DNA from: Mesorhizobium sp.
GTDB lineage: Bacteria; Pseudomonadota; Alphaproteobacteria; Rhizobiales; Rhizobiaceae
Assembly (NCBI RefSeq): GCF_017306545.1
Contig: NZ_JAFKID010000032.1
Span: forward strand, 1-64,000
DNA length: 64,000 nucleotides
Direction: 5' to 3'
In this document: positions 1-43,850 of the stretch, piece after piece
How positions within the stretch are numbered: the stretch's first letter is position 1
How the letters are laid out: each line of letters starts with the position of its first letter
Position numbers and translations under genes: made by a program
The notes under the pieces: model-generated
The model's input: only the letters and a program-made list of their open reading frames with translations
Databases searched by the model: none
Told to the model about the DNA's origin: nothing

Positions 1-1194
1 GGCCAGCGCCAGACCGGCGGGGCAGGGCTGTTCCGCTCCGAGGACAATCTGGAAAGCCCCTATGCCCGCGCGGCGCTGCGCCAATTCTACTGGCTACTCC
101 ATCAGGGCAAAATCGAGGGCTGTTCGCTGATAACGTTCGAAGCGGTCACCGGCCTGTCGCTGACGACGGAGGAGGGCGGGTTGCGTGACGAACTACCGCC
201 GATCACGACCTGGCTCAACCGGCTGCTGGCGCTCCGGATCGAAACCCAGAATCTTCTGTTCGAGGTTTTCGAGCAGTTGATGGCGGCCAAGGTTGAAGGC
301 GCCATCGCCGCGGGCACATACGACATGGGCGTGGAGACGCTCACGGCAGAGAGCATCACCGTCACCGATCGCCGGACAATCTACACGCATCCGGTCTCGG
401 GCGCGCAGTCGCATGTGCTGACCGTCGCGCGCAAGGATCGCCTCCCGCCGCTCGGCCTGCGCGAGGCGCTGGCCATCGCCCGCGCGGAGCCGCAATCGGT
501 CTTTCTGGTCAATACGCGCTCGAACCGTGCGGCGATCCAGCTGCCGACGGCGAGCTTGATGCTCGACGACGGCACCGTCGAGCACCGCGTACGGTTGCTA
601 CGGCCGACCGACGAACTGCGCTTCGGTCTCGACGCCATTGCCGAAACTTTCTGGCAAGCGGCCGACCGCAAAAAGTTCTGCGAACTCTGGCAGGCGGAAG
701 TCGCTGCCGTCCCGGAGTTCACCACCAGCACCTTCCATATGGTCACCGGCCTGCTGTTGCCGATCTGGCGGCGGCTGCCCGATCATGATTGCCAAGTCTA
801 CCGCATCCAGACCGATGCCGGCAAACGCATCATCGGCCGTCATATCGCGCCGACGATGGTGTCGAGCATGTTGCGCAATCTCGGCATCGACAATGTGCCG
901 GCGCTCGCGCCGGAGGACGCCTGGGCCGGGCTGGTCGAAGGGAAGATCGGGCTGCAGCTGGCGGACGGGATGATCCTGCGGCGCAGCCGTGTCATGAACG
1001 ACTATCGCGTCGAGCTGATCGGCTTCACCGAGGCGATGGTTCCTCGGCTGAAGGCTCTCGGCCTGATTTCGGAAATCATCTCCTGGAAACTCAGGCTGTT
1101 CATCCCGACCGGCGGCCAGGGCTCCGCCATCCTCGCCTCGCTTCTCGAGAGCCACACGCTGGTCGGCGTCACCGACCGCACGGCGGCAGCGTGA
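1..1194 (+). CDS. Strawberry-notch-like helicase family protein, C-terminal part (cut by left edge)
   Basis: The frame is open from base 1 and ends in TGA at 1192-1194, so only the last 397 residues are visible. Segments such as GQRQTGGAGLF, ESPYARAALRQFY and GTYDMGVETLTAES match the C-terminal region of the large strawberry-notch-like proteins (usually about 1,400-1,500 aa, with methyltransferase-like and DEAD-like helicase parts) carried by rhizobial plasmids and ICEs. Their role in the element is not established; a part in DNA processing is inferred. The Toprim gene follows after 12 bases, so the two are probably co-transcribed. An internal TTG at 181 is only a possible start inside the long frame and is not used. 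Confidence 0.85.
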   Translation, partial: GQRQTGGAGLFRSEDNLESPYARAALRQFYWLLHQGKIEGCSLITFEAVTGLSLTTEEGGLRDELPPITTWLNRLLALRIETQNLLFEVFEQLMAAKVEGAIAAGTYDMGVETLTAESITVTDRRTIYTHPVSGAQSHVLTVARKDRLPPLGLREALAIARAEPQSVFLVNTRSNRAAIQLPTASLMLDDGTVEHRVRLLRPTDELRFGLDAIAETFWQAADRKKFCELWQAEVAAVPEFTTSTFHMVTGLLLPIWRRLPDHDCQVYRIQTDAGKRIIGRHIAPTMVSSMLRNLGIDNVPALAPEDAWAGLVEGKIGLQLADGMILRRSRVMNDYRVELIGFTEAMVPRLKALGLISEIISWKLRLFIPTGGQGSAILASLLESHTLVGVTDRTAAA

Positions 1195-1206
1195 CCGGAG
1201 GCGATC

Positions 1207-2250
1207 ATGTCTGGCTCGGCAGCAGAGCTGGCACGCCGCCTCGGCGATCATGCCGAGGCGGTGTGCCGCGAATATCTCTCCAACGGCCGACGTGTCGGCA
1301 ATTACTGGATCGTCGGCGACGTGCGCAATGCGGAGGGCCGCTCGATGCATGTGCGGCTGAAGACCAACGCGAAGGGATTAGCCGGAAAATGGGTTGACGA
1401 GGCGACCTTAGAATTCGGCGACCTGCTCGACGTCATCCGCGAAAGCTGTGGCCTGATCGAATTCCACGATGTCGCGGACGAGGCCCGCCGTTTCCTCGCT
1501 ATGCCGCGGCCGCAGGCGCAGGACCCCGGCACGCAGCGCCAGCCAGCCGCGGCACACGGCTCTCCCGAAGCGGCAGGTCGCCTGTTCGCCATGTCGCGGC
1601 CGATCGCCGGCACGCTGGCCGAACGCTATCTTCGCAGCCGCGGCATCCTGCTCGCCGCGCGTGAGCGCACCCTGCGCTTCCACCCCGGCTGCTACTATCG
1701 CGATCTCGTGACTGGCGAGGTGCAGGCCTTGCCCGCGCTCATCGCTGCCGTCACCAATCTCGACGGTCGCCTGACCGGTCTGCAACGCACCTGGTTGGAT
1801 CCCGGCGGCAACGGCAAGGCGCATGTCGACGACCCGCGCCGCTCGCTCGGTCATCTGCTCGGCAACGGCATCTGGCTCGGCCTCGATCCCGGTCGGCCTG
1901 TCCGGGTCATCGCCGCCGGCGAGGGTTTCGAGACGATGGCCTCGCTGCACACGGTGATGCCGGCCCTACCGGTGGCCGCCACCACTTCGGCCAACCACCT
2001 CGCCGGCATGATCCTGCCGCCCGATTGCCGTCGCCTCTATATCGCGGCCGATGCGGACGCCGCCGGCCGGCATGGCATCGAGCGTCTTAGCCAGCGAGCC
2101 GGCGAAGCCGGGATCGCAACCCTCGTGTTGCGGCCGCAGCTCGGCGACTTCAACGACGATCTGCGCCATCTCGGCCCGAACCGTCTCGCGGCATGGCTCG
2201 GCGATCAGCTCCTCCCGGAAGATGCCCGTTACTTTCTTCCTTCCGGATGA
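1207..2250 (+). CDS. Toprim-domain protein (primase-like, DUF7146 type)
   Basis: A 347-residue protein with a GGAGG ribosome site 5 bases before the ATG. The N-terminal 110 residues (YLSNGRRVGNYWIVGDV, then KWVDEATLEFGDLLDVI) resemble the domain preceding Toprim in mobile-element primase-like proteins. The Toprim part contains the acidic motif AAGEGFETM near residue 238 and the D-x-D motif AADADAAGRHG near residue 281, the metal-binding residues expected of the fold. The likely role is nucleic-acid priming or processing during maintenance or transfer of the element. It sits between the strawberry-notch-like gene and the DUF2493 gene, a common arrangement on rhizobial plasmids. Confidence 0.85.
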   Translation: MSGSAAELARRLGDHAEAVCREYLSNGRRVGNYWIVGDVRNAEGRSMHVRLKTNAKGLAGKWVDEATLEFGDLLDVIRESCGLIEFHDVADEARRFLAMPRPQAQDPGTQRQPAAAHGSPEAAGRLFAMSRPIAGTLAERYLRSRGILLAARERTLRFHPGCYYRDLVTGEVQALPALIAAVTNLDGRLTGLQRTWLDPGGNGKAHVDDPRRSLGHLLGNGIWLGLDPGRPVRVIAAGEGFETMASLHTVMPALPVAATTSANHLAGMILPPDCRRLYIAADADAAGRHGIERLSQRAGEAGIATLVLRPQLGDFNDDLRHLGPNRLAAWLGDQLLPEDARYFLPSG

Positions 2251-2494
2251 ACGCGCTCGCCGGCAAGCGGGCAGGGCCGGTGTCACCGCACGCTCGCAGG
2301 CATGGCGGCGGTCCCGTCGGCGAGGCCGCGCCCGCGGCCTGCCTGAGAGGCGATCCCTGCCACTCCCCAGTCACGGCCGCAACGGCTGCGCCGTCCTCCG
2401 CTTCGCTCCGGCCTTCGGTGCGGCCGCGCTCGGGGCGCGGCCGGGATGCGCTGTCAGGCCGCGATGGACGCGGCCACAACCGACGGAGACAGCC

Positions 2495-3436
2495 ATGAAC
2501 TACGACCTTCCCTTCGACGACGCCTATGAGCCCTACCACGCCTCCTCGCCGACCGACCGCGTCATCCTCGAACTGCAGATGTACGGCCATCGTCCGCATC
2601 AGGACGAGCCGGATCCCCGCCCGCTGCCCGACGATGCCGTGATCCGCTCCGGTCTGGCCGGCATAGTCGATACCTTCACCGGCATGCTCGGTGACACCAG
2701 GCTCGAACCCGATCTCGACGACCTGCTCTGGTCCTTCGTCAACGTCTTCCACCGCGCCGCCGAGCGCGTCGCCCGCAACCTTGACCGCAACGAGGAGGCC
2801 CAACGCTCGAGCCAGAACGAACAGGACGGCTCGGAGGTGAAGTCCGTCGAGCTGGAGCGGCTCACCGCCGAAGGCATCACCTATATCGAGCGCCGCAATG
2901 TGCTGGAAATCATGCGCGACGAGGCGGCCGACCTCTACGAGGCGCAGACCGGCTCGGCATGGCGACCGCGCACCGGCTCGAAAGTCTCGCATCAGGCCAT
3001 GACGGCGGCGGTGATCGACAGCCGCGACTTCCTCGCCGCGCGCCGCCGCGCCGACACCGAGGTGCTGGTGCCGGCTGGTACAAAGATCGCCTTCTCCGGT
3101 GGCCTCGACTGCAACGAGCACGACAGGATCTGGGAGGCGCTCGACAAGGCCCGCGAGAAGCACCCCGACATGGTCCTGCTCCATGGCGGCAGCCCACGCG
3201 GCGCCGAGCGCATCGCCGCCTGCTGGGCCGAAAGCCGGAAAGTCACGCAGATCGCCTTCAAGCCGGACTGGAACCGGCACGCCAAGGCCGCCCCCTTCAG
3301 GCGCAACGACCAGCTGCTCTCGGTCATGCCTTACGGGCTGATCGTCTTCCCCGGTTCCGGCATCACCGAAAACCTCGCCGATAAGGCGCGCCGCCTCGGC
3401 ATCCCGGTCTGGCGATTCACCGAGGATAGCGTGTGA
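2495..3436 (+). CDS. DUF2493 domain protein (YspA-like SLOG fold)
   Basis: A 313-residue protein. The frame is open far upstream, but the ATG at 2495 (MNYDLPFDDAYEPYHASS) is chosen because the upstream part is low-complexity and overlaps the Toprim gene; GGAG lies 8 bases before it. The first 190 residues are helical and acidic with no recognised domain. The last 115 form a Rossmann-like SLOG domain: IAFSGGLDCNEHDRIWEAL, then LLHGGSPRGAERIAACWA, then VIVFPGSGITENLADKAR. SLOG proteins are thought to bind nucleotide-derived ligands. A second SLOG-like protein is encoded at 4484, with a toxin-antitoxin pair between them. Confidence 0.8.
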   Translation: MNYDLPFDDAYEPYHASSPTDRVILELQMYGHRPHQDEPDPRPLPDDAVIRSGLAGIVDTFTGMLGDTRLEPDLDDLLWSFVNVFHRAAERVARNLDRNEEAQRSSQNEQDGSEVKSVELERLTAEGITYIERRNVLEIMRDEAADLYEAQTGSAWRPRTGSKVSHQAMTAAVIDSRDFLAARRRADTEVLVPAGTKIAFSGGLDCNEHDRIWEALDKAREKHPDMVLLHGGSPRGAERIAACWAESRKVTQIAFKPDWNRHAKAAPFRRNDQLLSVMPYGLIVFPGSGITENLADKARRLGIPVWRFTEDSV

Positions 3437-3570
3437 GCGCTACGTTTCCTCGCCCCGTGGCGGACGCGCTTCCAGCGCCACATCGACGAACCCGACCTTG
3501 GAGTCGGGTTCGTCGTGCACTCGCATTTCGTATCCGCCTCCCGCGATCTTTGTAGCGAGGAGCCATTTTC

Positions 3571-3598
3571 TTGCAAATCGGGAAAATCTGGATATTAT
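3571..3598 (+). promoter_or_regulatory. Putative promoter of the toxin-antitoxin pair
   Basis: TTGCAA at 3571-3576 and TATTAT at 3593-3598 with a 16-base spacer, 24 bases before the antitoxin ATG. The surrounding 60 bases are visibly richer in A and T than the neighbouring genes. This is a sigma-70-like match by eye only. Confidence 0.45.
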
Positions 3599-3622
3599 GG
3601 AGAACTATACGGAGACTCGGCC

Positions 3623-3883
3623 ATGCGACAGTTCACGACAGGCGACCTCAACAAGCAGGTTGGCGACGTTACCGATGCCGCCAGCCGTGAACCGATCGTG
3701 CTCACCAAGCACCGCAAACCCCGCTTCGTCCTCATGAGTTACGAGCATTACGAGCGGATGCGCACCGGCAGGGATCCACGCCGCGCCTATCGTGTCTCCG
3801 ATATGCCGGACGAGCACAAGGACCTCTTCGCCGCGGAAATCGACCGGCTGGCGCGCGGCGAAGGGTATGACGATGAGCCATGA
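3623..3883 (+). CDS. Phd/YefM-family antitoxin
   Basis: An 86-residue protein. The ATG at 3623 follows a GGAGA ribosome site, and the N-terminus MRQFTTGDLNKQVGDVTDAASREPIVLTKHRKPRFVLMSYEHYERM has the Phd/YefM layout: a short DNA-binding N-terminus, the strand 'PIVLTKHRKPRFVLMS', then a helix. The C-terminal tail (DMPDEHKDLFAAEIDRLA) would wrap the toxin. It is expected to repress its own promoter and neutralise the product of the next gene, whose start lies inside this gene's last codons. Confidence 0.8.
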   Translation: MRQFTTGDLNKQVGDVTDAASREPIVLTKHRKPRFVLMSYEHYERMRTGRDPRRAYRVSDMPDEHKDLFAAEIDRLARGEGYDDEP

Positions 3884-4292
3884 GTTCCTGCCGGGCCAGG
3901 TCATCGCCTATCCTTATCTCTGGGCATGGCAGCAGGAACGTGGCGAAACCGAAGGCCGCAAGGTCCGGCCGACCTGCGTCGTCGTAGCCGTCAGAAGCGC
4001 AAATGACGGCCTGACCCACCTCGCCCTTCTCGGCATCACCACGCAGCCGCCGCAGCACAGTCGCGTTGCGCTCGACATCCCGGATATCGAGCGCCGGCGC
4101 GCGGGTCTGAGCGACCTCAAGCGATGCTGGATCGTCGTCGACGAATACAATTACGATGTCGCCGAGCGCTCCTGGTACATGGAACCGGGAAACGACATCC
4201 TTGGCCGCTTCAGCAAGGCCTTCGTGATGAAGATCGCAACCGCCTTCGCCAAAGCGCGGCAATCGGGGCGGCGCGTCGACCGTCTGGATTGA
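3873..4292 (+). CDS. PemK/MazF-like toxin of a type II toxin-antitoxin pair
   Basis: A 139-residue protein overlapping the antitoxin gene by 11 bases. The ATG at 3873 is preferred over the one at 3867 because AAGGG at 3861-3865 is better spaced for it. The opening FLPGQVIAYPYLWAWQ and the following EGRKVRPTCVVVAV fit the start of the PemK/MazF beta-barrel (G-x-V/I, then K-x-RP). Family members are endoribonucleases that cleave mRNA; that activity is assumed here. The pair probably stabilises the element by killing or arresting cells that lose it. The C-terminal half (SWYMEPGNDILGRFSKAFVMKIATAF) is more divergent. Confidence 0.65.
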   Translation: MSHEFLPGQVIAYPYLWAWQQERGETEGRKVRPTCVVVAVRSANDGLTHLALLGITTQPPQHSRVALDIPDIERRRAGLSDLKRCWIVVDEYNYDVAERSWYMEPGNDILGRFSKAFVMKIATAFAKARQSGRRVDRLD

Positions 4293-4483
4293 CGCTTTTC
4301 CTTTCTGCTTCTTTTAAACCCGTCCACTCGGCACACTGGCTTGTGGCCGGCCGGCCCTGGTCGCAGCGTGCCGCCGCTCCCGAGCCGGCCTCGCCGCCTT
4401 GGCCTGCGGGACCATCACGCGCGCAGGAGAGGGAGGGGAGAGCCGGGCCGGGGCGGGGGCTTTGAGAGAAAGGAAGAGCGACC

Positions 4484-5017
4484 ATGGCGATGATATTTTT
4501 AGGCGGCTCACGCGACATCTTGGAACTGCCCGTTCCGGCAATCGAGCGGATCGGCGCGATCGTGGCGGCCGAGCACGGCGTCCTGATCGGCGACGCGCCC
4601 GGAGCCGATGCCGAAATGCAAAGCCTGCTCGCCGGCTACAATTACGAGCATGTCGGCGTCTTCCATGCAGGAGCCGAACCGCGCAACAATCTCGGTGACT
4701 GGGCCGCCTATCCCGTCCCGCCGCCAGAGGGTGCACGGGGCTTTGCCATCCACGCCGAGAAAGACCGGGAGATGGCCCGCCGCGCCGACTTCGGCCTGAT
4801 GGTCTGGAATGGCGAATCCCCGGGCACCTGCCTCAACGTATTGCGCCTTGCCATCACTGGCAGCCCTTGCGTCGTCTACGACACCATGCGCGGCGTAGTG
4901 GCGTCCGTCCACAACACTGTAGACTGGCGCGCCATGCTGCACCATGCAGGTCCCGAGGTACGCTGTGACGTCGAGGCGCGCATGTCCGCGAACGAGCGCG
5001 GCGCGCTGGAAGCCTGA
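4484..5017 (+). CDS. SLOG-like nucleotide-binding-fold protein
   Basis: A 177-residue protein with an AAGGAAGAG ribosome site before the ATG. The pattern IFLGGSRDI, then GVLIGDAPGADAEMQSLLAG, then a later 'FGLMVWNGESPGTCLNVLRL' follows the SLOG/YAcAr Rossmann-type layout also seen in the DUF2493 protein upstream: a glycine-rich first loop, GDAPGAD and a late W-x-G-x-S-x-G loop. No catalytic function can be assigned. Two SLOG-like genes within 3 kb, flanking a toxin-antitoxin pair, suggest a ligand-sensing or defence-related module, but this is inference. Confidence 0.65.
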   Translation: MAMIFLGGSRDILELPVPAIERIGAIVAAEHGVLIGDAPGADAEMQSLLAGYNYEHVGVFHAGAEPRNNLGDWAAYPVPPPEGARGFAIHAEKDREMARRADFGLMVWNGESPGTCLNVLRLAITGSPCVVYDTMRGVVASVHNTVDWRAMLHHAGPEVRCDVEARMSANERGALEA

Positions 5018-5510
5018 TCGCGGCGAGCCGCAATGGCCGGTTCGCGTCAAAGTGATGGGAGCTGCTGCCCCGACCCGGCCGGAGGCCGACCTCTTGTGAC
5101 GCCGCCTCTCGCGGCTCGCCGGCATTCCTCGGAATACGCTACCCGTCCATTGCGCCAAGGGCAGGACGGTGGGATCAGGCGACCCGTCGGCGATTGACAG
5201 CAGCTTGACGCCGGATGATCACCTCGCCGGTGTCGGAAGCGCGCGTCTCTCCCGGCAGCGGCCCCGAAGCCCGGATGCATGGCGGCGGACGGTAGCATGG
5301 GCCGCAGCGCGGAACGGTCGGGTCCGGGGCAGGCGGCGGAGAGGCAGATCCGCAGGCGGGGAAACGCTGACCTGCGAACGCCGCCGCAGCGTCGAGAATC
5401 TGCGATGGCGGCCGGAGGCATCGCCTTCGCTCACATCCGGACCATTCCCGTTTCATGTCGCCTTTGTAGTGGACCGCCTGCTTTTGCGGTCAACCCCCGT
5501 TGGGGGTACG

Positions 5511-5647
5511 CTCGGCAAGAAATTCCGGAAAATTCGATTTCGGTTTTTTTGTTGGCGGGCCAGGCACTTTCCTTCCCGCAAGCGGGGCCCTTGAAAGTGC
5601 GGCCCGCTCTCTGCGGCAAATAGAATTTTCCGGAATTTCCTGCCGAG
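5511..5647. repeat. Long inverted repeat, 25-bp arms (24/25 match)
   Basis: The left arm is 5511-5535 (begins CTCGGCAAGAAATTCC) and the right arm 5623-5647 (ends GGAATTTCCTGCCGAG). They are reverse complements except for one base and are separated by 87 bases that hold a second, 8-bp inverted repeat. The A/T-rich core GGAATTTTC/GAAAATTCC stands out from the GC-rich surroundings. It is not an obvious intrinsic terminator because no T-run follows. It may be a protein-binding site, a replication or transfer structure, or the remains of an insertion with terminal inverted repeats. Confidence 0.75.
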
Positions 5648-5680
5648 TGACCGCAGCAGGACGGCCCCCTCCTTTGGCGC

Positions 5681-5700
5681 CATCGGGAATGGTCCCGATG
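5681..5700 (+). promoter_or_regulatory. Hairpin before the DUF736 gene
   Basis: CATCGGGA at 5681-5688 and TCCCGATG at 5693-5700 form a perfect 8-bp stem with a 4-base loop, ending 5 bases before the AAGGAG ribosome site of the DUF736 gene. No T-run follows, so it is more likely an operator or a translation-affecting leader hairpin than a terminator. Confidence 0.4.
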
Positions 5701-5719
5701 CAAGCGAAGGAGAAGTACC

Positions 5720-6043
5720 ATGGCCACCACGATCGCAAACCTCACCGCCAAGGCCGACGGCTCGATGGAAGGCGTGTTCGCCACGCTGAGGGTCAACGCC
5801 CCGATCACCCTCATCCCGAACAACAACAAGTCGCGCGAGGATGCGCCCGACTACCGCATCGTCAACAAGCGCACGGGCTTCGAGATCGGAGCCGGCTGGA
5901 ACCGCGTCTCCCAGCGTTCGGGCGAGGAATACCTCTCGGTCAAGCTGGAAGCCCCCGAGATCGGCGTGATCTTCGGCAACCTCGCTCCCGCCCCCGGCGG
6001 TGAGGAGAACAAGAAGGTGATCCTGTGGAATAACCCGCAGTGA
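5720..6043 (+). CDS. DUF736 family protein
   Basis: A 107-residue protein starting at an ATG with AAGGAG 8 bases upstream. The sequence MATTIANLTAKADGSMEGVFATLRVNAPITLIPNN, then DYRIVNKRTGFEIGAGWNRVS and EYLSVKLEAPEIGVIFGNL is typical of DUF736, small beta-rich proteins on alphaproteobacterial plasmids and ICEs, usually near DUF2493 and strawberry-notch genes as here. Their biochemical role is unknown. A strong terminator follows immediately, so the gene may be highly expressed as a single unit from the repeat-rich region upstream. Confidence 0.9.
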   Translation: MATTIANLTAKADGSMEGVFATLRVNAPITLIPNNNKSREDAPDYRIVNKRTGFEIGAGWNRVSQRSGEEYLSVKLEAPEIGVIFGNLAPAPGGEENKKVILWNNPQ

Positions 6044-6051
6044 ACCGCAGC

Positions 6052-6086
6052 GAGCCGGCCCCGCAAGGGGCCGGCTCTCTTTCTGT
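6052..6086 (+). terminator. Intrinsic terminator after the DUF736 gene
   Basis: GAGCCGGCCCC (6052-6062), loop GCAA, then GGGGCCGGCTC (6067-6077): a perfect 11-bp GC-rich stem followed by a T-rich stretch (TCTTTCTGT). It lies 8 bases past the DUF736 stop codon. Confidence 0.8.
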
Positions 6087-6108
6087 CCCGCACCATCAGG
6101 AGGTTTCC

Positions 6109-6435
6109 ATGAGCCGCTACACCATCACCGTCATCGGCAACGGCGGTTCCGACCCCGACGCCGTCATCGGCTACGATCCGCCGCTGCGTACCTTCTTCTT
6201 ACAAGCGTTCCCCGACGAAAGTGGCGACGATCTTGCTTTGTGGCTCGGCACAAGCGACCGCGAATTCGAAACGGTCGATGCGCTGCACGCAGCGGCGCGG
6301 TCACGAGGGTTCGACTTTATGCCGCTTCCTAAGGACGTCGCGTTGCTGCTGGCCGAGGATTTCGGCAAAGATGCCGTGCGCCCACCGCGTGATGGCCCAC
6401 TCGCAGCGTTTCTGCGCCATCTGCAATCGAAGTAG
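6109..6435 (+). CDS. Conserved-looking hypothetical protein of the element backbone
   Basis: A 108-residue protein. The ATG at 6109 has a strong AGGAGG site 6 bases before it, which decides the start. The sequence (MSRYTITVIGNGGSDPDAVIGYDPPLRTFFLQAF, then DLALWLGTSDREFETVDALHAAA) is not recognised. It is acidic, has no membrane segment or signal peptide, and the spacing of its predicted strands and helices suggests a small alpha/beta domain. It is isolated between two strong terminators, so it is probably transcribed from its own promoter or by read-through. Confidence 0.65.
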   Translation: MSRYTITVIGNGGSDPDAVIGYDPPLRTFFLQAFPDESGDDLALWLGTSDREFETVDALHAAARSRGFDFMPLPKDVALLLAEDFGKDAVRPPRDGPLAAFLRHLQSK

Positions 6436-6446
6436 TCCAATGAAAC

Positions 6447-6489
6447 GAGGCCCGTGCCGGATGATCATCGGCGCGGGCCTCTTTTTTTT
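6447..6489 (+). terminator. Intrinsic terminator
   Basis: GAGGCCCGTGCCG (6447-6459) pairs with CGGCGCGGGCCTC (6469-6481) with one central mismatch, followed by eight T residues (6482-6489). It ends the transcript of the 108-residue hypothetical protein. Confidence 0.85.
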
Positions 6490-7127
6490 CGGCTGTTCGC
6501 TACCCGCGAATGGTATCCCATCCGCCGGCGTTGTAATAAACGCGCCTTGTTGCAGGCGATATCGGCGCGACAGACGATAGTCGTCACTTTGGCCCCTTGA
6601 GGTGGCTTGTCGTCCCATGAACCTATGCGGATGCCAATGCTCGGATCCGGTCCGTCGACGGCGACAAAAAAGGTCGGTGCATAGCCCGGATTTGCTGTGT
6701 GCGGGCGAGCCGGCCTGCGGCCGACCGCGCTCTATTCGCGACGCCTGCGCGCCGCTCACGGAGCCCGTTAAAACGGTCTCCGCCTCCGGTGACGATCGCA
6801 TCTCGCGAGGCTGCGGGATTCGGATCGACCGGCTCCCGCAGCCACGAGGGGCGACCCCTCGCGCACCCCGCCGGCTGGTCGCCGGATATGGGCGCATCCC
6901 CTGGCGGGGATGCGGGTCTCTATCTCTCTGACGTCCCAGTCTACTGGCCGCTCCCATCGCCTCAAGGACATCGCGGTGCCCCCAATTTTCTGCCGTCGCC
7001 CTGATGGGCGCCGCCAGAAAATCGGCACCCCCGCTCGCCGCCTCCGGCGGTCGCTTCGCGATCCTTGACCCGATGCTCGACTTGCCCGTCGCGGGACCTC
7101 CGTCATCAAGATGAAGGAGACCATGAC
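6490..7127. other. Gene-free stretch with hairpins
   Basis: About 640 bases in which no reading frame looks real: the long minus-strand frames here are arginine/proline-rich shadows. It contains a perfect 9-bp stem CGCATCCCC/GGGGATGCG with loop TGGC (6893-6914) and, near 6972-7046, an imperfect inverted repeat built around AATTTTCTG and CAGAAAAT with GGTGCC/GGCACC at its outer ends. This could be regulatory DNA for the gene at 7128 or a decayed gene. Confidence 0.4.
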
Positions 7128-7688
7128 ATGGCACACAACAATCTCATGCTTGTCGCGCAACTTTCGGGCATGCGCATCAATGTCCTCGCGAACCGGCTCG
7201 GCTGCGACACGGAACTGGCGCGTGGCGTCCACGACCGCCTTGCGGAAAAGCTCGCGAAGATGATCGATGCGCAGCGCAACATTCTCGCGGCCGACAGGGC
7301 GCTTGTCGCGGCGCGCGGCACCGAAGACGAAGAGGACGCCTTCTTCGATCAGCATCATTACCAGACAGCCTGGTACGAAACGTGGCTGGTCGAGCCGATC
7401 GCGCTTCTCGACGACTATCTGGTCGACGAGCTGACGCACGAATATTTCGATTTTCGCGAAGCGCGCTGGTATTTCATGGATGGCGTGCTTCCCATCGTCG
7501 AGCGGGTTCCCGACGACAAGCTCTGCGGCCTCACCAAGATCATCGCCGAGATCGAGGAGATCAGCGGCGTCAGGTTCACCGTCGAGAACGTCTATTACAG
7601 TGAGGCCGAAGCCGAGGCAGCGTGGTGGGAACGTACTGGTCACGACCCGGACACGTTTTTCGCATTGAACGATGGCGGCCGCGATTGA
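7128..7688 (+). CDS. Hypothetical acidic protein
   Basis: A 186-residue protein. The ATG at 7128 is preferred because AAGGAGA (7114-7120) is well placed and the upstream extension is not protein-like. The sequence (MAHNNLMLVAQLSGMRINVLANRLGCDTELARGVHDRLAEKLAKMIDAQ) is helical and strongly acidic toward the C-terminus, with aromatic pairs (WYETW, YFDFREARWYFMDG). No domain is recognised, and there is no signal peptide or membrane segment. It is followed by a perfect 14-bp-stem terminator, so it is a monocistronic gene. Confidence 0.65.
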   Translation: MAHNNLMLVAQLSGMRINVLANRLGCDTELARGVHDRLAEKLAKMIDAQRNILAADRALVAARGTEDEEDAFFDQHHYQTAWYETWLVEPIALLDDYLVDELTHEYFDFREARWYFMDGVLPIVERVPDDKLCGLTKIIAEIEEISGVRFTVENVYYSEAEAEAAWWERTGHDPDTFFALNDGGRD

Positions 7689-7807: not shown

Positions 7808-8224
7808 TCATTCTTTCGGCAGTTTGTGCTTGTGCGCGCGGATGTAATCCTGCACCGCCTTGCGCAGCAGTTCCGTCATGCTATGGCCGTTGCTGACCGC
7901 CAGCAGTTTGAACTGACGCTGCTCCAAAGCCGTCAGGTAGTAGCCGCAGCGCACCATTTCTTCCTCGCGAATCTTCCTGCCTGCGACGGGGTCCTTCTTC
8001 TGGCCTTGTCGCAACAGCTTTCGAAAGTCGGGCGCGGCGGCCGGCGATGCCGGCGCCGACGCCTTTTTGCCCGACGGTTGCCCGGCTCCTTCCATCTTTC
8101 TATTAGATGCGTCGCCCTTCGGCGCAATGAACATGCTCGGCAGCGCCGGCGGTTGCGTCGAGATCGCCTTCAGCATCCGTGCTTTCTTGTCGTTGTTCGG
8201 CTTCGGTGTGGAAGCGTCGCTCAT
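7808..8224 (-). CDS. Ribbon-helix-helix-like partner of the ParA ATPase
   Basis: A 138-residue protein whose ATG overlaps the ParA stop codon (ATGA), so the two are translationally coupled. The first 75 residues are disordered and rich in P, A, K and S. The last 50 (EMVRCGYYLTALEQRQFKLLAVSNGHSMTELLRKAVQDYIRAH) look like a strand followed by two helices, as in ribbon-helix-helix DNA-binding proteins. Small RHH proteins downstream of a ParA commonly bind a centromere-like site and recruit the ATPase; that role is inferred. The two matching palindromes upstream of the ParA gene are candidate targets. Confidence 0.65.
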   Translation of the reverse strand: MSDASTPKPNNDKKARMLKAISTQPPALPSMFIAPKGDASNRKMEGAGQPSGKKASAPASPAAAPDFRKLLRQGQKKDPVAGRKIREEEMVRCGYYLTALEQRQFKLLAVSNGHSMTELLRKAVQDYIRAHKHKLPKE

Positions 8225-8901
8225 GCCGGGTTCCTTGTGGCTTCTATGAAGGCTTGGAGAATATCGTCGAACACGCCTTCGCTTTCGGCAATCGCTTTCG
8301 CGTCGGGTTCGGCGGGACTGTAGAGCGTCTGTCCGGACTGGAGATCGCGATAGGCGACGCGGTTGTTCAGGACGTGCTCGGCAATCGGCGTGCCATTTGC
8401 CTGAATCATTGTGCGCAGTTCGCTCAAGGCACGCGCCCTGCCGTCGATGATGGTCTGCTTCGTCAGCACGAACACGGCAGGCAACGGTCGGCCTCGGCTT
8501 TCCACCGCCAATGGAAGGTAGTGATCGGTGATCTGGATCGCGGCGGTAACGTCGTCGAGCGCGAAATAGACCGGCACCACGACGATGTCGGCCGCATACA
8601 GCCCCGCCATCAGATTGTCGTTGGTGGTCCCTTCGGTATCGATCAGGACAACAGATCGTTCGCCATTGTATCGCGCAGCGGCATCGAGAATCTCGTGTGG
8701 CGTTGCGGCGCTGACCAGTTGGAGGCTGTCAGGGCAATTGCCAGCCTCGCCCAGCATCTGGAACCAGCGGCTCATATTCTGGCGGCGGTCCCCGTCGACC
8801 AGCGTCACCGCGTAGCCCCGATGCAGCGCGACCGACGCAATTGCCCGCAGCAGGGTCGACTTACCAGTCCCGCCCTTCGGAATTGCAGCGGAGATGATCA
8901 T
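8221..8901 (-). CDS. ParA/VirC1-like partition ATPase
   Basis: A 226-residue protein. The ATG at 8901 is chosen because GGAGGAA precedes it and the deviant Walker A motif then lies at the N-terminus: MIISAAIPKGGTGKST (KGGTGKS near residues 9-15). Further ParA features are TLVDGDRRQNMSRW and VVLIDTEGTTNDNLMAGL. Proteins of this class segregate plasmids or, like VirC1, assemble relaxosomes at oriT. Its position between two palindromes and the mob genes fits either job. The gene is transcribed away from mobC, and its upstream region holds both palindromes. Confidence 0.85.
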   Translation of the reverse strand: MIISAAIPKGGTGKSTLLRAIASVALHRGYAVTLVDGDRRQNMSRWFQMLGEAGNCPDSLQLVSAATPHEILDAAARYNGERSVVLIDTEGTTNDNLMAGLYAADIVVVPVYFALDDVTAAIQITDHYLPLAVESRGRPLPAVFVLTKQTIIDGRARALSELRTMIQANGTPIAEHVLNNRVAYRDLQSGQTLYSPAEPDAKAIAESEGVFDDILQAFIEATRNPA

Positions 8902-8927
8902 CGGCTTCCTCCCTGCCAAATGTCTCG

Positions 8928-8953
8928 TTGTTTCGATGTTAACATCGAAACAA
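8928..8953. repeat. 26-bp perfect palindrome, copy 1 (candidate operator/centromere)
   Basis: The half-site TTGTTTCGATGTT is followed directly by its exact reverse complement. It lies 27 bases upstream of the ParA start codon. The core ATGTTAACAT and the flanks CTCG/GTCA are shared with the second copy at 9145. Confidence 0.8.
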
Positions 8954-9144
8954 GTCATCAACAACACAGGGTGACATGGATAAGTCCGATCCTATCTCCC
9001 GGACGGACCGGGCTGGGCCGCGACACGGCGGACGGCGGCATCTAGGCGACTTCGGTGGAGCATGGCCGAGCATGCGCACGATGGCTGAAGCTGCGATGCC
9101 GCGCAGCAGGTGATGACAGACAGCCGTCTCCCCCGCTTCGCTCG

Positions 9145-9170
9145 TTGTCTCTATGTTAACATAGAGACAA
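9145..9170. repeat. 26-bp perfect palindrome, copy 2 (candidate operator/centromere)
   Basis: The half-site TTGTCTCTATGTT is followed directly by its exact reverse complement. It differs from copy 1 at two positions per half, and both changes are mirrored in the other half, so the symmetry is kept. This is good evidence that a dimeric protein reads the site. Natural readers are the RHH protein at 7808 or the ParA-RHH complex. Confidence 0.8.
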
Positions 9171-9283
9171 GTCACCACGGCACTACAGACACATGACATC
9201 ATGACGTCGCCGTGCGCTGCGGTAAGGTGGTGTAGGGGTGCGTAACCTCGAACCTTCTCGCCAATGTTGATGTATTATTAGTG

Positions 9284-9320
9284 GCAGGATAGCCTATTTT
9301 GTGATACACACTAAATAGGC
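9284..9320 (-). other. oriT: Candidate oriT (MOBP-type nic site plus inverted repeat)
   Basis: Read on the - strand there is an inverted repeat GCCTATTT/AAATAGGC (arms 9313-9320 and 9292-9299, 13-base loop) followed at once by TATCCTG and C (9291-9284). RP4-class MOBP origins have the nic core YATCCTG|Y next to an inverted repeat, so the predicted nick is between bases 9285 and 9284 on the - strand. The site is 45 bases before mobC and the relaxase. With this polarity the mob genes would enter the recipient last, as is usual for MOBP elements. A further small hairpin GGCCC/GGGCC lies at 9326-9339. Confidence 0.65.
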
Positions 9321-9365
9321 GGCGCGGCCCTGTCGGGCCTTAGCGCCCGCAAGTGGGCTTGAGAG

Positions 9366-9773
9366 ATGGAAGCAGACGCCCAGAATGCACCGGCAAAGAG
9401 CGCAACGCGCCGTTATGGCGAGGTGGCGCATGTGCGCTTTTCGGCAGAGGAACTGGCCAGCCTCAAAGCTATTGCCGAGCGTGAAGGCGTGACCGTCAGC
9501 GAGGTCGTTCGGCGACTGGTGCGTGCCGAGACCGGTCATTTGCCCGTGGCGTCGGAGGTGCTCCTGCCGGCGGTCCTGGACATGACGGACCAGCTGCGGC
9601 GGATCGGGCTAAACTTCAATCACGCCGTGCGCGCCATGAACGAGGGTCGTGTTCCGTATGACGAGGACCTTGAAAGCGCACTGATGGCCGTTGGCGATCT
9701 GGTTCGGCAGTTCCGGGAGGAATTGAAGGCGATGACGATCGGGTCCCGGAAGGCAAGGGGGGCCAAGCCATGA
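9366..9773 (+). CDS. mobC: MobC-like relaxosome accessory protein
   Basis: A 135-residue protein. An N-terminal RHH-type DNA-binding stretch (AHVRFSAEELASLKAIAEREGVTVSEVVRRLVRAETG, residues 20-58) is followed by a MobC-like helical part with the family signature DQLRRIGLNFNHAVRAMNEG (residues 78-97). MobC proteins bind at oriT and help expose the nic site for the relaxase. Its stop codon overlaps the relaxase start (ATGA), and the candidate oriT lies just upstream. Confidence 0.85.
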   Translation: MEADAQNAPAKSATRRYGEVAHVRFSAEELASLKAIAEREGVTVSEVVRRLVRAETGHLPVASEVLLPAVLDMTDQLRRIGLNFNHAVRAMNEGRVPYDEDLESALMAVGDLVRQFREELKAMTIGSRKARGAKP

Positions 9774-12028
9774 GCCGTCGCCTTGCCGTTTATGCGGCCG
9801 AGATCGAGCGCTACCTGCATGGGGTGCCGATGGTGGTGGGCGATCTGGAAGAGGAGCAACCTGCTACAAGCGCGCGGCGGGAGGCCGGTGAATTCCAGGC
9901 GATGGGGATTTATGAGCGCGGAGGCGGGGGCGGGCGTAGCGGGGGATGGCGAGCCGGATCGGGAAGTGGCGGCTCTGCATCGCTGGCGGCCGGCGGGCGT
10001 ATAGGAGCGCCAGGCGCGAGATCGGCATCCAGCAGGACTCCGAAACCTACCGCTGGTGCGGCCTCGCCCAAGGCCGCCAGCGCGCCCATCATGATCTATA
10101 CCGCCACACTCGCCGGTTTTCGGCCGGCAGAGGAGGAGGAAGAGTGGAAGCGGCGGAGCGGTGGCGGGCGTGGCAGGGCTAGCGAGGGCGGCGGCCGGCA
10201 TGGAAGAAGTGTTGGCGGAGTGCGAGCTGCCTATCAGGCGCGTGCGGTGGCGGCGCGTGCCGGCTATGCCGCCGGCGCCCAGCCTGCCGTGTTCAAGGTC
10301 ATGCCCAAGCCGCCATCGACCAGAGAAGCCGCGGCGCGGCTGATCAATTATCTCGGCCGGCGTGACAATGAGAACGGCGAGAAGCACGACATCGACATCT
10401 TCGACGAAGACGGCCAGGTCCTCGCGACGGGCGCTGCCCGAAAAGCCTTTCTGAAGACGTTTTGCGAGACGTTCGAACCACCGCTGGAAAACACCAATTT
10501 CATTGAGGTGCGTTTCGAGTTGACAGCCGACGTCAGCGACGATGCACTGAAGGATGCGCTGAACGAGGCGTTCGGGTCGAAGCCGTTTGTCTATACGCGC
10601 CACGACCAGACGGTTGAGATCTTTGCCCATGTCGAAGAGCGGGCGGGGCCGCTCGCCCAGGTGCTGGCCGGGGGCCGGGAGAATTCGCGCAGCAGGGCGC
10701 TCGACAAGATCGAGGCGCGCTTAGGCGAAGGGTTGGGGCGGGTAGGGGTCACGGCGACGGTCGAGGTCACGGCAGCGGTCGGGAACGAGTGGCAGGCAAA
10801 ATATTTTCTGCAGAAGTTCATCCGCATGCATTCGGGCGTCCATGACACGAACGGTGATCCGGTTCGCGGAGCGAAAAATCCTTCGAAGGCGGCAGCGTCG
10901 CTCTACGAGCAATGGCGGCCGCAGCTCTCGGGTCGCGAACGGCGCAATGCCTATCATCTGCTTTTTTCGGCACGGGCCGGTACGGATGCGAACGCGGTCA
11001 TGGCGGCCGCACGCGCCGTGCTGGAAGAGCGCGCGCCAGGCTACAAGTTCGTCCTGGCGCATCACAAGGACACGAAACACGTTCATATCCATGCAATGGT
11101 GCAGGCGCGTTCCGCCGATGGTGAGCGCCTCAAATTCTACAAGCCGGATCTGGTCGCCTGGCGCGAGGCGTTTGCGGAAAAGGCACGCGAGTACGGCATC
11201 GCCATGGTGGCGACGCGGCGCATGGACCATGCGATGAGCCGCCCGTTCACAAAGGAGCATGTCGGCGCCTATAACCGGGCGCAACGCGATCCACGCTATT
11301 CTGTCAGCGCCAGAACGGTCGAGCGGGTAGAGGCCAAGCGGCAGCGCCGGATCGACGGACAGACGCTTGTCGCGAACGGCGATGCAATTGCGGCGGCCTG
11401 GCAAACGACCGCCGCGACAATGCGAAGCGTTGGCGTCACAGGGCTGGCGCTCACCGCTGCCGAGTCGATCGGCAAGAACCTTCTGCAGTACCGCGATGGC
11501 CAGGCGGGAAAGGGGGTTTCGGATGCTGCGACGGATCGTGGGGCGGGCGAGAAAAGCCAAAAATCTTTCCTTACCCATCCCGCCATGAAAGAATTGATTG
11601 CACTGATAGGAGATCTCGACATGGCCCAGACACCGTTGGAGATGCGGCAGAAAATGGACCGCGTGAACAAGGCGCTCGACGCTATGGGCGAGACGTTGCC
11701 CGAAGCGGAACAGAACCGGTTCGAGCAGTATCGCGAGGACGTCAACGACAAGATGCACGACCGGCTTGCACGCCTGCAGTTCGAAGCGGAGCAGCAGCGG
11801 AAGGCAGGAGCGTCCGGTGGCGGCGAACCCGTTCCCGAACGCGAAGCGCGCGGGCGCGATCTTCCGGCGCGCGACGATGCTCGCCAGCCGGAGACGTCGC
11901 GTCGGGAAGCCGAGGCGACCCGAAGCCGGCAGGATCAGCAGCAGGAGCGGAATAGGAAGAAGGTTCGGCAGGCGGAAGAGCAGGATCGCCGCACACAGCG
12001 ATCCAACGACAATGATTACGAGCGATAG
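9770..12028 (+). CDS. MOBP-type relaxase/mobilization nuclease
   Basis: A 752-residue protein. Residues 1-170 are low-complexity and rich in G, S, A and R, with no recognised domain. The relaxase domain starts near residue 173 (FKVMPKPPSTREAAARLINYLGRR), where the tyrosine of INYLGR is a candidate nicking residue. Motif III is clear near residues 429-439: AHHKDTKHVHIHAMVQ, the metal-binding histidine triad. The C-terminal 250 residues are charged and coiled-coil-like, ending in a Q/R/E-rich tail that may carry a secretion signal for the type IV channel. It should nick oriT, stay bound to the 5' end and pilot the strand through the VirB/VirD4 channel at 17.8-30.9 kb. Confidence 0.9.
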   Translation: MSRRLAVYAAEIERYLHGVPMVVGDLEEEQPATSARREAGEFQAMGIYERGGGGGRSGGWRAGSGSGGSASLAAGGRIGAPGARSASSRTPKPTAGAASPKAASAPIMIYTATLAGFRPAEEEEEWKRRSGGGRGRASEGGGRHGRSVGGVRAAYQARAVAARAGYAAGAQPAVFKVMPKPPSTREAAARLINYLGRRDNENGEKHDIDIFDEDGQVLATGAARKAFLKTFCETFEPPLENTNFIEVRFELTADVSDDALKDALNEAFGSKPFVYTRHDQTVEIFAHVEERAGPLAQVLAGGRENSRSRALDKIEARLGEGLGRVGVTATVEVTAAVGNEWQAKYFLQKFIRMHSGVHDTNGDPVRGAKNPSKAAASLYEQWRPQLSGRERRNAYHLLFSARAGTDANAVMAAARAVLEERAPGYKFVLAHHKDTKHVHIHAMVQARSADGERLKFYKPDLVAWREAFAEKAREYGIAMVATRRMDHAMSRPFTKEHVGAYNRAQRDPRYSVSARTVERVEAKRQRRIDGQTLVANGDAIAAAWQTTAATMRSVGVTGLALTAAESIGKNLLQYRDGQAGKGVSDAATDRGAGEKSQKSFLTHPAMKELIALIGDLDMAQTPLEMRQKMDRVNKALDAMGETLPEAEQNRFEQYREDVNDKMHDRLARLQFEAEQQRKAGASGGGEPVPEREARGRDLPARDDARQPETSRREAEATRSRQDQQQERNRKKVRQAEEQDRRTQRSNDNDYER

Positions 12029-13161: not shown

Positions 13162-16156
<2,995 letters not shown>

Positions 16157-19977: not shown

Positions 19978-19993
19978 CGTGCCGCCACTCCCG

Positions 19994-21019
19994 TCAGATC
20001 GTCTCCGATTTGGTGAATTTGATCTCGCTGATGGCGCGGTGACCACCTTCCGACCGAACCATCTGCACGACCACCGGGATGACTTCGCGCAGATAGTCGA
20101 GGATCTCGGCGCGCGTTAGCCCGACATTGCCTTGCATGACCATAAGGGCGAGCCGTTCGTAGGCCGAGCGCGCGGAGTTCGCGTGGACCGTGGTCAGCGA
20201 TCCGGGGTGGCCGGTATTGATCGCCTGCAGGAACGAAAATGCTTCCGAGCCGCGCAACTCACCCAAAAGCAGACGATCGGGACGCATGCGCAACGAGGCT
20301 TCGAGAAGCTGCTGCGGCGTGACTTTCGCAAGGCCCTGGCCGCCTTTCGAGGTCAGCAAACAGATATTGTTGAGCATCGGCGGCCTGAGCTCGCGCGTGT
20401 CCTCGATCGTAATAATGCGCTCATGGTCGGGTATGACTTTCAGGAGCGCGTTGAGGAACGTCGTCTTGCCGGTGGAGGTGCCGCCGGACACGACCACGGA
20501 GACGCGATTGCGGACAGCGAATTGCAGGAATTCGAGCGGCGAGGTGTCGTGCAGCATCTCGACGAGCTTTCTTTCTTCGGCCGAAAGCGCCAGGCCGCTT
20601 CCTAATACGGTATGTTCGAAGGCACCGCGCTCGGCATAGTCTGCCAAGGTCATATCCATGATGACCTGCTTGCGGATCGAGATTATCCCGCCGTCGGGCG
20701 CCGCCGGCGGTAGGACGCACTGAAAACGCTCGCCTGACGGCAGAGCGGCCGACAGGACCGGCGTCACTTCGTTGACGACCTGGTTGCTCGCAGAGGCGAC
20801 GCCGGTCGAAACGGAGCGAATCCAGTTGCGGGTCAGCTCTCGCTTGGCGACATGCTCCATCTCCTTTTCGCCAAGACGCTCAATGAAAACCTCGCCCGGC
20901 CGGTTTATGGCGATTTCAGAAACCGAATCCTCTTCGAGATAGGACCAAATCGGTTCGAGTTCGGCGCGCAGGACAGGCGCACGCGCCCACGGATTTGGTA
21001 TGGGCTGCACGACGTTCAT
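19994..21019 (-). CDS. virB11: Type IV secretion ATPase VirB11
   Basis: A 341-residue hexameric ATPase of the VirB11/PulE type. Walker A is VVSGGTSTGKTTFLNAL (near residue 178), with the Asp box ITIEDTRELR, Walker B-like RMRPDRLLLGELRGSEAF and the His box TGHPGSLTTVHANSA. The N-terminal domain carries SVSEIAINRPGEVFIE. The start codon overlaps the virB10 stop (ATGA). It drives pilus assembly and substrate transfer at the cytoplasmic face. Confidence 0.95.
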   Translation of the reverse strand: MNVVQPIPNPWARAPVLRAELEPIWSYLEEDSVSEIAINRPGEVFIERLGEKEMEHVAKRELTRNWIRSVSTGVASASNQVVNEVTPVLSAALPSGERFQCVLPPAAPDGGIISIRKQVIMDMTLADYAERGAFEHTVLGSGLALSAEERKLVEMLHDTSPLEFLQFAVRNRVSVVVSGGTSTGKTTFLNALLKVIPDHERIITIEDTRELRPPMLNNICLLTSKGGQGLAKVTPQQLLEASLRMRPDRLLLGELRGSEAFSFLQAINTGHPGSLTTVHANSARSAYERLALMVMQGNVGLTRAEILDYLREVIPVVVQMVRSEGGHRAISEIKFTKSETI

Positions 21020-43500: not shown

Positions 43501-43850
43501 TAGACGACGAGATCGGCCCAGCGCAGATCGCACTTTGCCTTTCCAGCACGTTTCTTGCCCAGCGATAGCAGACGGCAGAGCCTCGAATAGGCGGAGCGAT
43601 CGGTCGGATAGACGAGGATGGACGGGCCGTCGGTTAGATCGAGCCGGCAGCCGACGAGGAGGCGCACGCCGGTAGCCTTCGCGGCTTCGTGGGCGCGCAC
43701 AATGCCGGCGAGGCTGTTGCGGTCGACCACGCCAAGCGCCTCGATGCCCATCAGGGCGGCCTGCGCGAACAGTTCCTCGCAGGACGATGCGCCGCGCAGG
43801 AAGCTGAAATGCGACGTCACCTGGAGCTCGGCGTAGCGGGGCTCGTTCAT
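40578..43850 (-). CDS. dnaE2: Error-prone DNA polymerase DnaE2 (ImuC)
   Basis: A 1,090-residue C-family polymerase. The N-terminal PHP domain starts [26 protein letters not shown]; the palm is seen in [31 protein letters not shown] and [17 protein letters not shown], which holds the catalytic aspartates. Later come the helix-hairpin-helix region and an OB-type domain ([23 protein letters not shown]). With ImuA and ImuB it performs damage-induced mutagenic bypass. It starts 4 bases inside the end of imuB. Confidence 0.95.

What the first reader, a model, noticed from the sequence alone, without database searches (positions are those of the whole stretch)
9284..9339. A complete-looking MOBP oriT next to mobC and the relaxase
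On the - strand an 8-bp inverted repeat (GCCTATTT/AAATAGGC) is followed directly by TATCCTG|C, the RP4-class nic core YATCCTG|Y. It lies 45 bases before mobC and the relaxase, and the predicted polarity would send the mob genes last. The repeat and the core are seen in the sequence; the role follows from MOBP knowledge. It predicts that the VirB/VirD4 channel here is a DNA transfer system.
Basis: partly seen in the sequence, partly recalled or inferred. Interest (0 to 1): 0.8.

Follow-up and report, generated by a model that had tools for sequence, protein, structure and literature searches.

The report
Transfer origin of a Mesorhizobium element
This short hairpin with a nick-site sequence beside it is very probably the place where a conjugative element of a soil bacterium is cut so that one DNA strand can pass to another cell; it is a well-known kind of transfer origin, so the find is useful rather than surprising.

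Summary
On the minus strand GCCTATTTAGTG-tgtat-CACAAAATAGGC is followed at once by TATCCTG|C. The repeat is 11 of 12 bp, longer than reported. Of 10 YATCCTGY sites in the window only this one has such a hairpin.

Comparative evidence makes it an oriT. It lies at the same distance from the relaxase in 23 of 25 related loci, while the intergenic DNA beyond nic has diverged. Of 146 genomes of the genus, 25 have the site and all 25 have the relaxase. In two more distant relaxase groups the hairpin arms differ but still pair, with strong covariation, and the core stays TATCCTGCC. Arm type follows relaxase group.

The layout parA-oriT-mobC-relaxase plus VirB/VirD4 is that of rhizobial "type IV" plasmids. 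All 28 genomes with a close VirD4 have a relaxase match; one more has a VirD4 fragment only. This supports DNA transfer rather than effector delivery.

Nicking and mobilisation are not shown. Whether this copy sits on a plasmid is open: repC lies on other contigs. New member of a known kind; moderate interest.

The parts
9285..9291 (-). nic core TATCCTG; predicted nick between 9285 and 9284, followed by CCA
   Evidence: sequence; CAGGATA invariant in A1 (13 rows) and A2 (15 rows), whose rows were collected by that core; one natural change in the core in L094
9292..9303 (-). nic-proximal hairpin arm CACAAAATAGGC
   Evidence: its partner changes with it in relatives
9304..9308 (-). hairpin loop TGTAT; plus-strand TGTGNTAC around it is in all 15 chosen rows of A2 but only 8 of 13 rows of A1
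9309..9320 (-). distal hairpin arm GCCTATTTAGTG, with one mismatch not seen at the other 28 sites
9321..9347 (.). second inverted repeat (GGCGC-GGCCC-loop-GGGCC-TTA-GCGCC), possible accessory-protein site; weak by itself in this group
   Evidence: window minus strand z -2.57, but L003, L020, L026 z -0.81, 0.15, -0.01; a strong counterpart in L035 (z -6.3)
9282..9365 (.). conserved oriT block between nic and mobC
   Evidence: 29 regions: mean identity to the window 86-95% in the four 20-base bins 9293-9372, 22-58% in 15 of the 16 bins 8953-9272; edge at about 9282
9366..9773 (+). mobC: ribbon-helix-helix mobilisation protein
   Evidence: Pfam NikA-like 30.4 bits, cut-off 27
9770..12028 (+). relaxase, 752 aa; Tyr194 and His 432, 437, 439, 441 conserved
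   Evidence: Pfam Relaxase 51 bits, cut-off 24.6; residues the same in 15 of 15 aligned proteins
8221..8967 (-). ParA/VirC1-like ATPase, divergent from mobC
   Evidence: AAA_31, MipZ, VirC1 above cut-off; ParA_partition 88.4 bits, below its cut-off of 180
7808..8224 (-). small ribbon-helix-helix-like protein next to parA
   Evidence: weak Antitox_RHH match below cut-off; no match or 61
9145..9170 (.). 26-bp palindrome around ATGTTAACAT upstream of parA, probable operator
   Evidence: 84% mean identity in bin 9153-9172, inside a diverged region
8928..8953 (.). second, similar palindrome, inside the listed parA ORF near its (uncertain) start
   Evidence: D1, I6
17824..20046 (-). VirD4 coupling protein
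   Evidence: Pfam T4SS-DNA_transf 287 bits
19994..30974 (-). VirB11, B10, B9, B8, B6, B5, a transglycosylase, B4, B3, B2 and a VirB1-type transglycosylase; VirB7 not sought among ORFs under 80 aa
   Evidence: Pfam
181..7688 (+). predicted leading region (strawberry-notch helicase end, toprim primase, DUF2493, DUF736 and others)
   Evidence: ORFs; Pfam for the first only; the other names from the counterparts annotated in pMHa

Best explanation
The stretch from about 9282 to 9365 is the origin of transfer of a conjugative element of the rhizobial parA-oriT-mobC-relaxase / VirB-VirD4 type. MobC and the relaxase (possibly helped by the ParA/VirC1-like ATPase) assemble on the hairpin; the relaxase tyrosine cuts the minus strand between G9285 and C9284 and stays on the 5' end; VirD4 passes it to the VirB channel; the strand moves 5' first through parA and the genes at 181-7688 and brings mobC, the relaxase and the virB genes in last. 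Shown: sequence, conservation, covariation, synteny, co-occurrence. Inferred from known MOBP systems: nick position, binding, polarity, transfer.
For: Same block at -483 to -486 from the relaxase in 23 of 25 loci. Covariation in the arms: 7 of 11 pairs changed on both sides, score 0.378 against 0.145 +/- 0.029 shuffled (0 of 500 as high) and at most 0.160 slid; inside the window's own group compensatory pairs in L005/L077 and L079. Arm type follows relaxase clade. 25 of 146 genomes have the site, all among the 29 with the relaxase. Relaxase Tyr and His residues kept. Close VirD4 in 28 of 146 genomes, all 28 with a relaxase match. A leading-region module lies on the same side, in the same direction, of a different oriT type in 4 plasmids. 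MOBP relaxases are reported to need ATCCTG, with a more variable inverted repeat beside it (PMC3772185, passages).
Against: No nicking or mating data. The window's distal arm has a mismatch that lowers hairpin stability (-8.6 against -12.2 kcal/mol in L003). In L020, L021, L024 and L032 the arms pair poorly without gaps (scores 5, 4, 0, 0 against 12), though L020 folds at z -3.70 with a bulge. The relaxase is below the NCBIfam MobP1 cut-off (63.9 against 200) and has no clear solved-structure relative (MobA 2ns6 at E 0.0063 only). 3 of 19 loci of the outer group and 1 of 12 of the second group lack the site near the relaxase. Some relatives have broken relaxases: pieces in G031 and G074, stops in one G106 copy. 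No repC match on this contig, IS21 genes between relaxase and virD4.
Confidence: 0.93

Rival explanations
1. The hairpin is an operator or transcriptional element of the divergent parA/mobC promoters, and the nic core next to it is chance.
For: The site lies in a divergent intergenic region with other palindromes that look like operators; relaxosome proteins often repress their own genes (recalled).
Against: The same core stands next to arms of quite different sequence that still pair, while the distance from core to the annotated mobC start varies from -14 to -118 in the second group.
Confidence: 0.04
2. The oriT is real, but the VirB/VirD4 channel next to it mainly delivers effector proteins to plants, as in M. 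loti R7A, and the mob genes are passengers or dead.
For: The Vir system on a plasmid of M. huakuii 7653R was discussed with host specificity (PMC4072884, passages), and traG/virD2 mutants of a Bradyrhizobium T4SS affect nodulation (PMC11201211, passages). Some relatives have broken relaxases. IS21 genes separate relaxase and virD4 here.
Against: All 28 genomes with a close VirD4 have a relaxase match; only G062 has a VirD4 fragment (202-aa frame) without one. All 30 VirD4 records listed (of at least 5000 matches) are among the first 39 relaxase records. In the window relaxase and the vir genes tested are open frames with family matches.
Confidence: 0.06
3. The site is a working oriT of an element that is not an autonomous plasmid here (integrated or fragmented), so it would mobilise chromosomal DNA.
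For: No RepC match (PF03428) on contig C38 of 96.8 kb (other replication genes were not sought); the contig also carries ORFs that look like sdhB, ImuA/ImuB/DnaE2 and arginine deiminase (by eye).
Against: The assembly is in 66 contigs and two small ones hold repC; 11 close relatives are records of the plasmid collection, pMHa circular.
Confidence: 0.2

Closest known systems
Mesorhizobium huakuii 7653R plasmid pMHa (CP006582.2) and other Mesorhizobium plasmids with this relaxase
   Same: Same gene order from the strawberry-notch gene through parA, oriT, mobC, relaxase to virD4-virB; oriT region 96.4% identical over 84 bases.
   Different: Relaxase about 72% identical; pMHa has an AAA ATPase and an S8 peptidase gene between relaxase and virD4, the window has IS21 genes and others.
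Rhizobial type IV / MobZ (MOBP0) transfer regions, e.g. pT173b and pT173c of Ensifer canadensis (L059, L054)
   Same: Divergent parA and mobC with hairpin and TATCCTGCC between them or at mobC's start; VirD4/VirB11 beside it in pT173b.
   Different: Relaxase group 36-44% identical, separate clade; arms GTCAAGTTTG/CAAACTCGAC instead of GCCTATTTTGTG/CACAAAATAGGC.
RP4 (IncP) oriT and Agrobacterium VirD2 nick sites
   Same: Nick consensus (C/T)ATCCTG(C/T); in RP4 an inverted repeat directly beside it (PMC3772185, passages).
   Different: RP4 uses Trb mating genes and TraJ/TraK accessory proteins (recalled); here the mating genes stand in VirB order and the accessory gene is a NikA/MobC-like RHH.
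vir-like MOBP1 conjugative plasmids of Mesorhizobium (pTONO-1 group, PMC8627217, section 14 read)
   Same: Mesorhizobium plasmids with a vir-like T4SS and a MOBP relaxase; probably the published home of this system (inference).
   Different: That section gives no oriT for them; I did not compare pTONO-1 itself.

Membership tests
MOBP-class oriT | nick consensus YATCCTG|Y | tested here: met
   TATCCTG|C at 9291-9284
MOBP-class oriT | inverted repeat directly 5' of the nick core on the cut strand | tested here: met
   11/12 repeat, 0 nt gap; covariation in relatives
MOBP-class oriT | relaxase of the MOBP class in cis, with Tyr and His motifs | tested here: met
   Pfam Relaxase (MobA/VirD2-like) above cut-off; Tyr194 and four His in 15 of 15; no MOB-class profile beyond NCBIfam was at hand
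MOBP-class oriT | site- and strand-specific nicking; mobilisation in cis | not testable with these tools
   needs purified proteins and mating tests
NCBIfam MobP1 subfamily (NF041450) | score at or above the curated cut-off | tested here: not met
   63.9 bits against 200
Rhizobial type IV (MobZ, MOBP0) transfer region | parA and mobC divergent with oriT between, relaxase after mobC, VirB/VirD4 mating genes | tested here: met
Rhizobial type IV (MobZ, MOBP0) transfer region | relaxase falls inside the MOBP0 clade of published trees | tested here: inconclusive
   groups with the pT173b/pT173c-type clade (SH-aLRT 100) but is a clade of its own; reference sequences of types IVa and IVc were not placed
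RP4 (IncP) transfer system | Trb-type mating genes in trb order | tested here: not met
   order is VirB1/B2/B3/B4/B5/B6/B8/B9/B10/B11/VirD4; Pfam families are shared by Trb and VirB proteins, so this rests on order, and the trb order is recalled
M. loti R7A-type effector VirB/D4 | VirD4 system without a relaxase and oriT of its own (recalled) | tested here: not met
   relaxase and oriT in cis; 28 of 28 genomes with close VirD4 have a relaxase match

The most novel reading that the evidence does not exclude
In alphaproteobacterial VirB-type plasmids the oriT is a two-part address: a shared core (TATCCTGCC, often with a TGTGNTAC loop) read by every relaxase of the class, and arm sequences that differ by relaxase clade and tell the machinery which element to cut. 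This keeps co-resident elements apart (this genome has a second relaxase with its own hairpin) while leading-region modules are exchanged between elements with different oriT types.
Probability: 0.4. Interest if true: 0.5.

Novelty: new member of a known kind. Interest (0 to 1): 0.35.

Why it matters
It gives a precise, testable nick site for a group of Mesorhizobium plasmids whose T4SS has been discussed as a possible host-specificity factor (M. huakuii 7653R, PMC4072884, passages) and one of which, pMHa, PLSDB types as non-mobilizable. With the oriT in hand, transfer of these plasmids can be tested with a short fragment, and the covarying arms offer a natural series for studying how MOBP relaxases choose their own origin.

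Tried and rejected
Orphan copies of the oriT that could be mobilised in trans: none seen in 146 genomes of the genus with this pattern (up to 1 mismatch); all 25 genomes with the site have a relaxase match, though in G124 the two lie on different contigs.

Second and third inverted repeats between 9321 and mobC as a conserved element: strong in the outer group (L035 z -6.3; L066 0 of 500 shuffles), but in the window's group three relatives gave z -0.81, 0.15 and -0.01, and L048 of the second group -0.83, so I do not claim them.

A universal loop motif TGTGNTAC: in all 15 rows of A2, but those rows were chosen by me; in A1 only 8 of 13 rows have it (exceptions L034, L037, L039, L045, L069), and L063 lacks it.

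Fold comparison: the model (pLDDT 77.7, pTM 0.57) gave no match at E <= 0.001; MobA 2ns6 was sixth at E 0.0063, behind unrelated proteins. Weak support only. Sequence searches of solved structures gave nothing related.

Loci L041, L046 and L071 of the outer group showed no core with a hairpin within 1500 bases upstream of the relaxase frame; L051 has an IS6 transposase gene where mobC should be. They are counted as misses.

Paper searches for a printed oriT of this group showed none in the listings; I opened eight papers in part only, and most subscription papers are not held. Giusti et al. 2012, which to my recollection located a functional oriT between parA and mobC of pSmeLPU88b, is not among the papers I saw; it is cited.

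Full report
What is there. The minus strand reads, from 9320 down, GCCTATTTAGTG TGTAT CACAAAATAGGC TATCCTG CCA. The mobC ATG is at 9366, 45 bases from the repeat. mobC matches Pfam NikA-like and the next gene, overlapping it, matches Pfam Relaxase, both above cut-off. Of 10 YATCCTGY sites in the window only this one carries such a hairpin; next to a random point the frequency was 126 and 75 of 150,000 in two models.

Relatives. The search for related loci returned 25 loci, 24 titled Mesorhizobium and one Hyphomicrobiales. In 24 of 25 the core lies upstream of the relaxase; in 23 of 25 at -483 to -486. L022 shows -587 because its match starts at residue 87 (its open frame starts at the usual distance), and L023 has only 45 bases upstream. 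L019 has two copies 101 bp apart. The hairpin is a perfect or nearly perfect 12-bp repeat in most, but in L020, L021 and L024 (relaxase 58-60% identical) it pairs well only with a bulge, if at all. Aligning 29 distinct regions of this group, the mean identity to the window per 20-base bin is 86-95% in the four bins 9293-9372, 77% in 9273-9292, and 22-58% in 15 of the 16 bins 8953-9272; the remaining bin, 9153-9172, is the palindrome at 84%. Conservation starts at about 9282, three bases beyond the predicted nick.

Genus-wide. Among 146 genomes of the genus 25 have the oriT pattern (29 sites; the reversed control pattern gave none) and 29 have the relaxase at E <= 1e-100; all 25 are among the 29 (Fisher p 2.5e-24, the genomes not being independent). 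From the coordinates of these calls I count 26 of 29 sites 485-488 bases before the relaxase start, after allowing for matches that begin inside the protein; the other three are the second copy of a tandem duplication and a copy with a match from residue 86, both in G106, and G124, where the two lie on different contigs. The relaxase matches of G031 and G074 are in pieces and one of G106 has two stops. Of the four genomes with relaxase but no pattern, G002 (locus L032) has other arms; G087 and G163 (62-63% identical relaxase) and G160 were not read. Own genome: one site.

Covariation. In 12 fetched plasmid loci with a relaxase 36-44% identical (Shinella, Sinorhizobium, Ensifer, Rhizobium, Nitratireductor), 11 have GTC(or GGC)AAGTTTG..CAAACTCGAC next to TATCCTGCC upstream of or at the start of mobC; the twelfth (L051) has an IS6 transposase gene there. 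In the outer group (25-35% identical) 16 of 19 loci have the core with a hairpin, mostly of the type GGAAAAATGT..ACATTTTTCC, some weak (L039, L066). A gap-free alignment of the 13 distinct sequences with 11/3/11 geometry (26 instances; the window's own group, with 12/5/12 geometry, and L063 were left out) gave 85.3% paired cells, 7 of 11 pairs changed on both sides, 17 cells changed on both sides against 5.5 +/- 1.7 shuffled, covariation score 0.378 against 0.145 +/- 0.029 (0 of 500 shuffles as high) and at most 0.160 for slid partners; further pair types were less clear (11 against 8.6, 32 of 500). A2 (15 rows chosen by me from all three groups) has CAGGATA and TGTGNTAC invariant, but the loop motif is in only 8 of 13 rows of A1. 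Within the window's group compensatory changes are seen in L005/L077 and in L079. One site (L094) has a changed base inside the ATCCTG hexamer, which should impair nicking if the published requirement holds (PMC3772185, abstract and passages).

Relaxase. A quick maximum-likelihood tree of 59 relaxases (63 loci less four: L022, L023, L025, L042) separates the three groups, each one side of a branch with SH-aLRT 100; the arm types follow these groups. Long branches such as L063 are unsure. Tyr194 and the histidines 432, 437, 439 and 441 are the same in 15 of 15 chosen proteins. The protein is below the NCBIfam MobP1 cut-off, and PLSDB's typing calls pMHa non-mobilizable although it has the relaxase and VirB/VirD4 genes.

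Channel. VirD4 and VirB2-B6 and B8-B11 have Pfam matches above cut-off; VirB7, a small protein, was not sought. Close VirD4 genes (E <= 1e-190) occur in 28 of 146 genomes, all 28 with a relaxase match; two of these VirD4 frames hold a stop (G128, G130). G160 has the relaxase without such a VirD4, and G062 has a VirD4 fragment without the relaxase. In the plasmid collection the 9 best VirD4 records are all among the 11 Mesorhizobium relaxase records, and the other 21 of the 30 listed are all among relaxase hits H12-H39. This favours DNA transfer. The genome paper on M. huakuii 7653R found the Vir proteins except VirB1 and VirB7 on pMhu7653Ra and discussed the system with host specificity (PMC4072884, passages); that this is the record now called pMHa is my inference.

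Polarity. By analogy with RP4 and VirD2 the relaxase stays on the 5' end at C9284, so parA and the genes at 181-7688 enter first and mobC, relaxase and virB last. In four plasmids with the outer-group oriT (Aminobacter MSH1 and MDW-2, Aquibium oceanicum, Mesorhizobium B2-1-8; the records found both in the 20 rows and the 13) the module that matches window 1-7660 in whole or part lies on the same side and in the same direction. The genes at 181-7688 are on the plus strand, so the transferred strand would be their template; this is inference.

Filing. The layout parA-oriT-mobC-relaxase with VirB/VirD4 is that of the rhizobial type IV systems (PMC10410297, PMC8628070, PMC10306167, PMC13274422, passages only). 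PMC10306167 calls pT173b/pT173c most like type IVb; PMC13274422 says that pT173b (printed there as pT137b) falls in neither type IV subgroup. The window's relaxase is a neighbouring clade. PMC8627217 (abstract and section 14 read, passages seen) reports MOBP1 relaxases on Mesorhizobium plasmids with a vir-like T4SS and, in that section, no oriT for them. I therefore call it a new member of a known kind, with a sequence that I did not find in print in the searches named under Tried and rejected.

Noticed in passing
L063 (own genome, contig C6) 506-537 and 2473-4503: A second MOBP-like relaxase of the same genome with its own hairpin (GGCTATCTGTATACAGATAGCC) beside GGCAGGATA, here upstream of a ParA-like gene rather than between parA and mobC.
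   Followed up: partly
8928-8953 and 9145-9170: Two 26-bp palindromes around ATGTTAACAT inside the listed parA ORF and upstream of it; the ATGTTAACAT core recurs in 5 of 14 relatives scanned (L003, L005, L015, L026, L047).
   Followed up: partly
L019 4413 and 4514; L085 and L099 (G106): Tandem duplication of the oriT, copies 101 bp apart.
   Followed up: no
L094 (G158): Natural change inside the ATCCTG hexamer next to an otherwise intact hairpin; the relaxase match of that genome has no stop inside.
   Followed up: no
1-7660: Leading-region module shared at DNA level with plasmids that carry a different oriT and relaxase type.
   Followed up: partly
13611-16156: IS21-type istA/istB pair between relaxase and virD4, where pMHa has an AAA ATPase and an S8 peptidase gene.
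   Followed up: no
40578-46046: ORFs that read like a DnaE2/ImuB/ImuA mutagenesis cassette on the same contig (by eye).
   Followed up: no
L047 (pMHa, CP006582.2): PLSDB types the plasmid as non-mobilizable although it carries relaxase, oriT-like site and VirB/VirD4.
   Followed up: no
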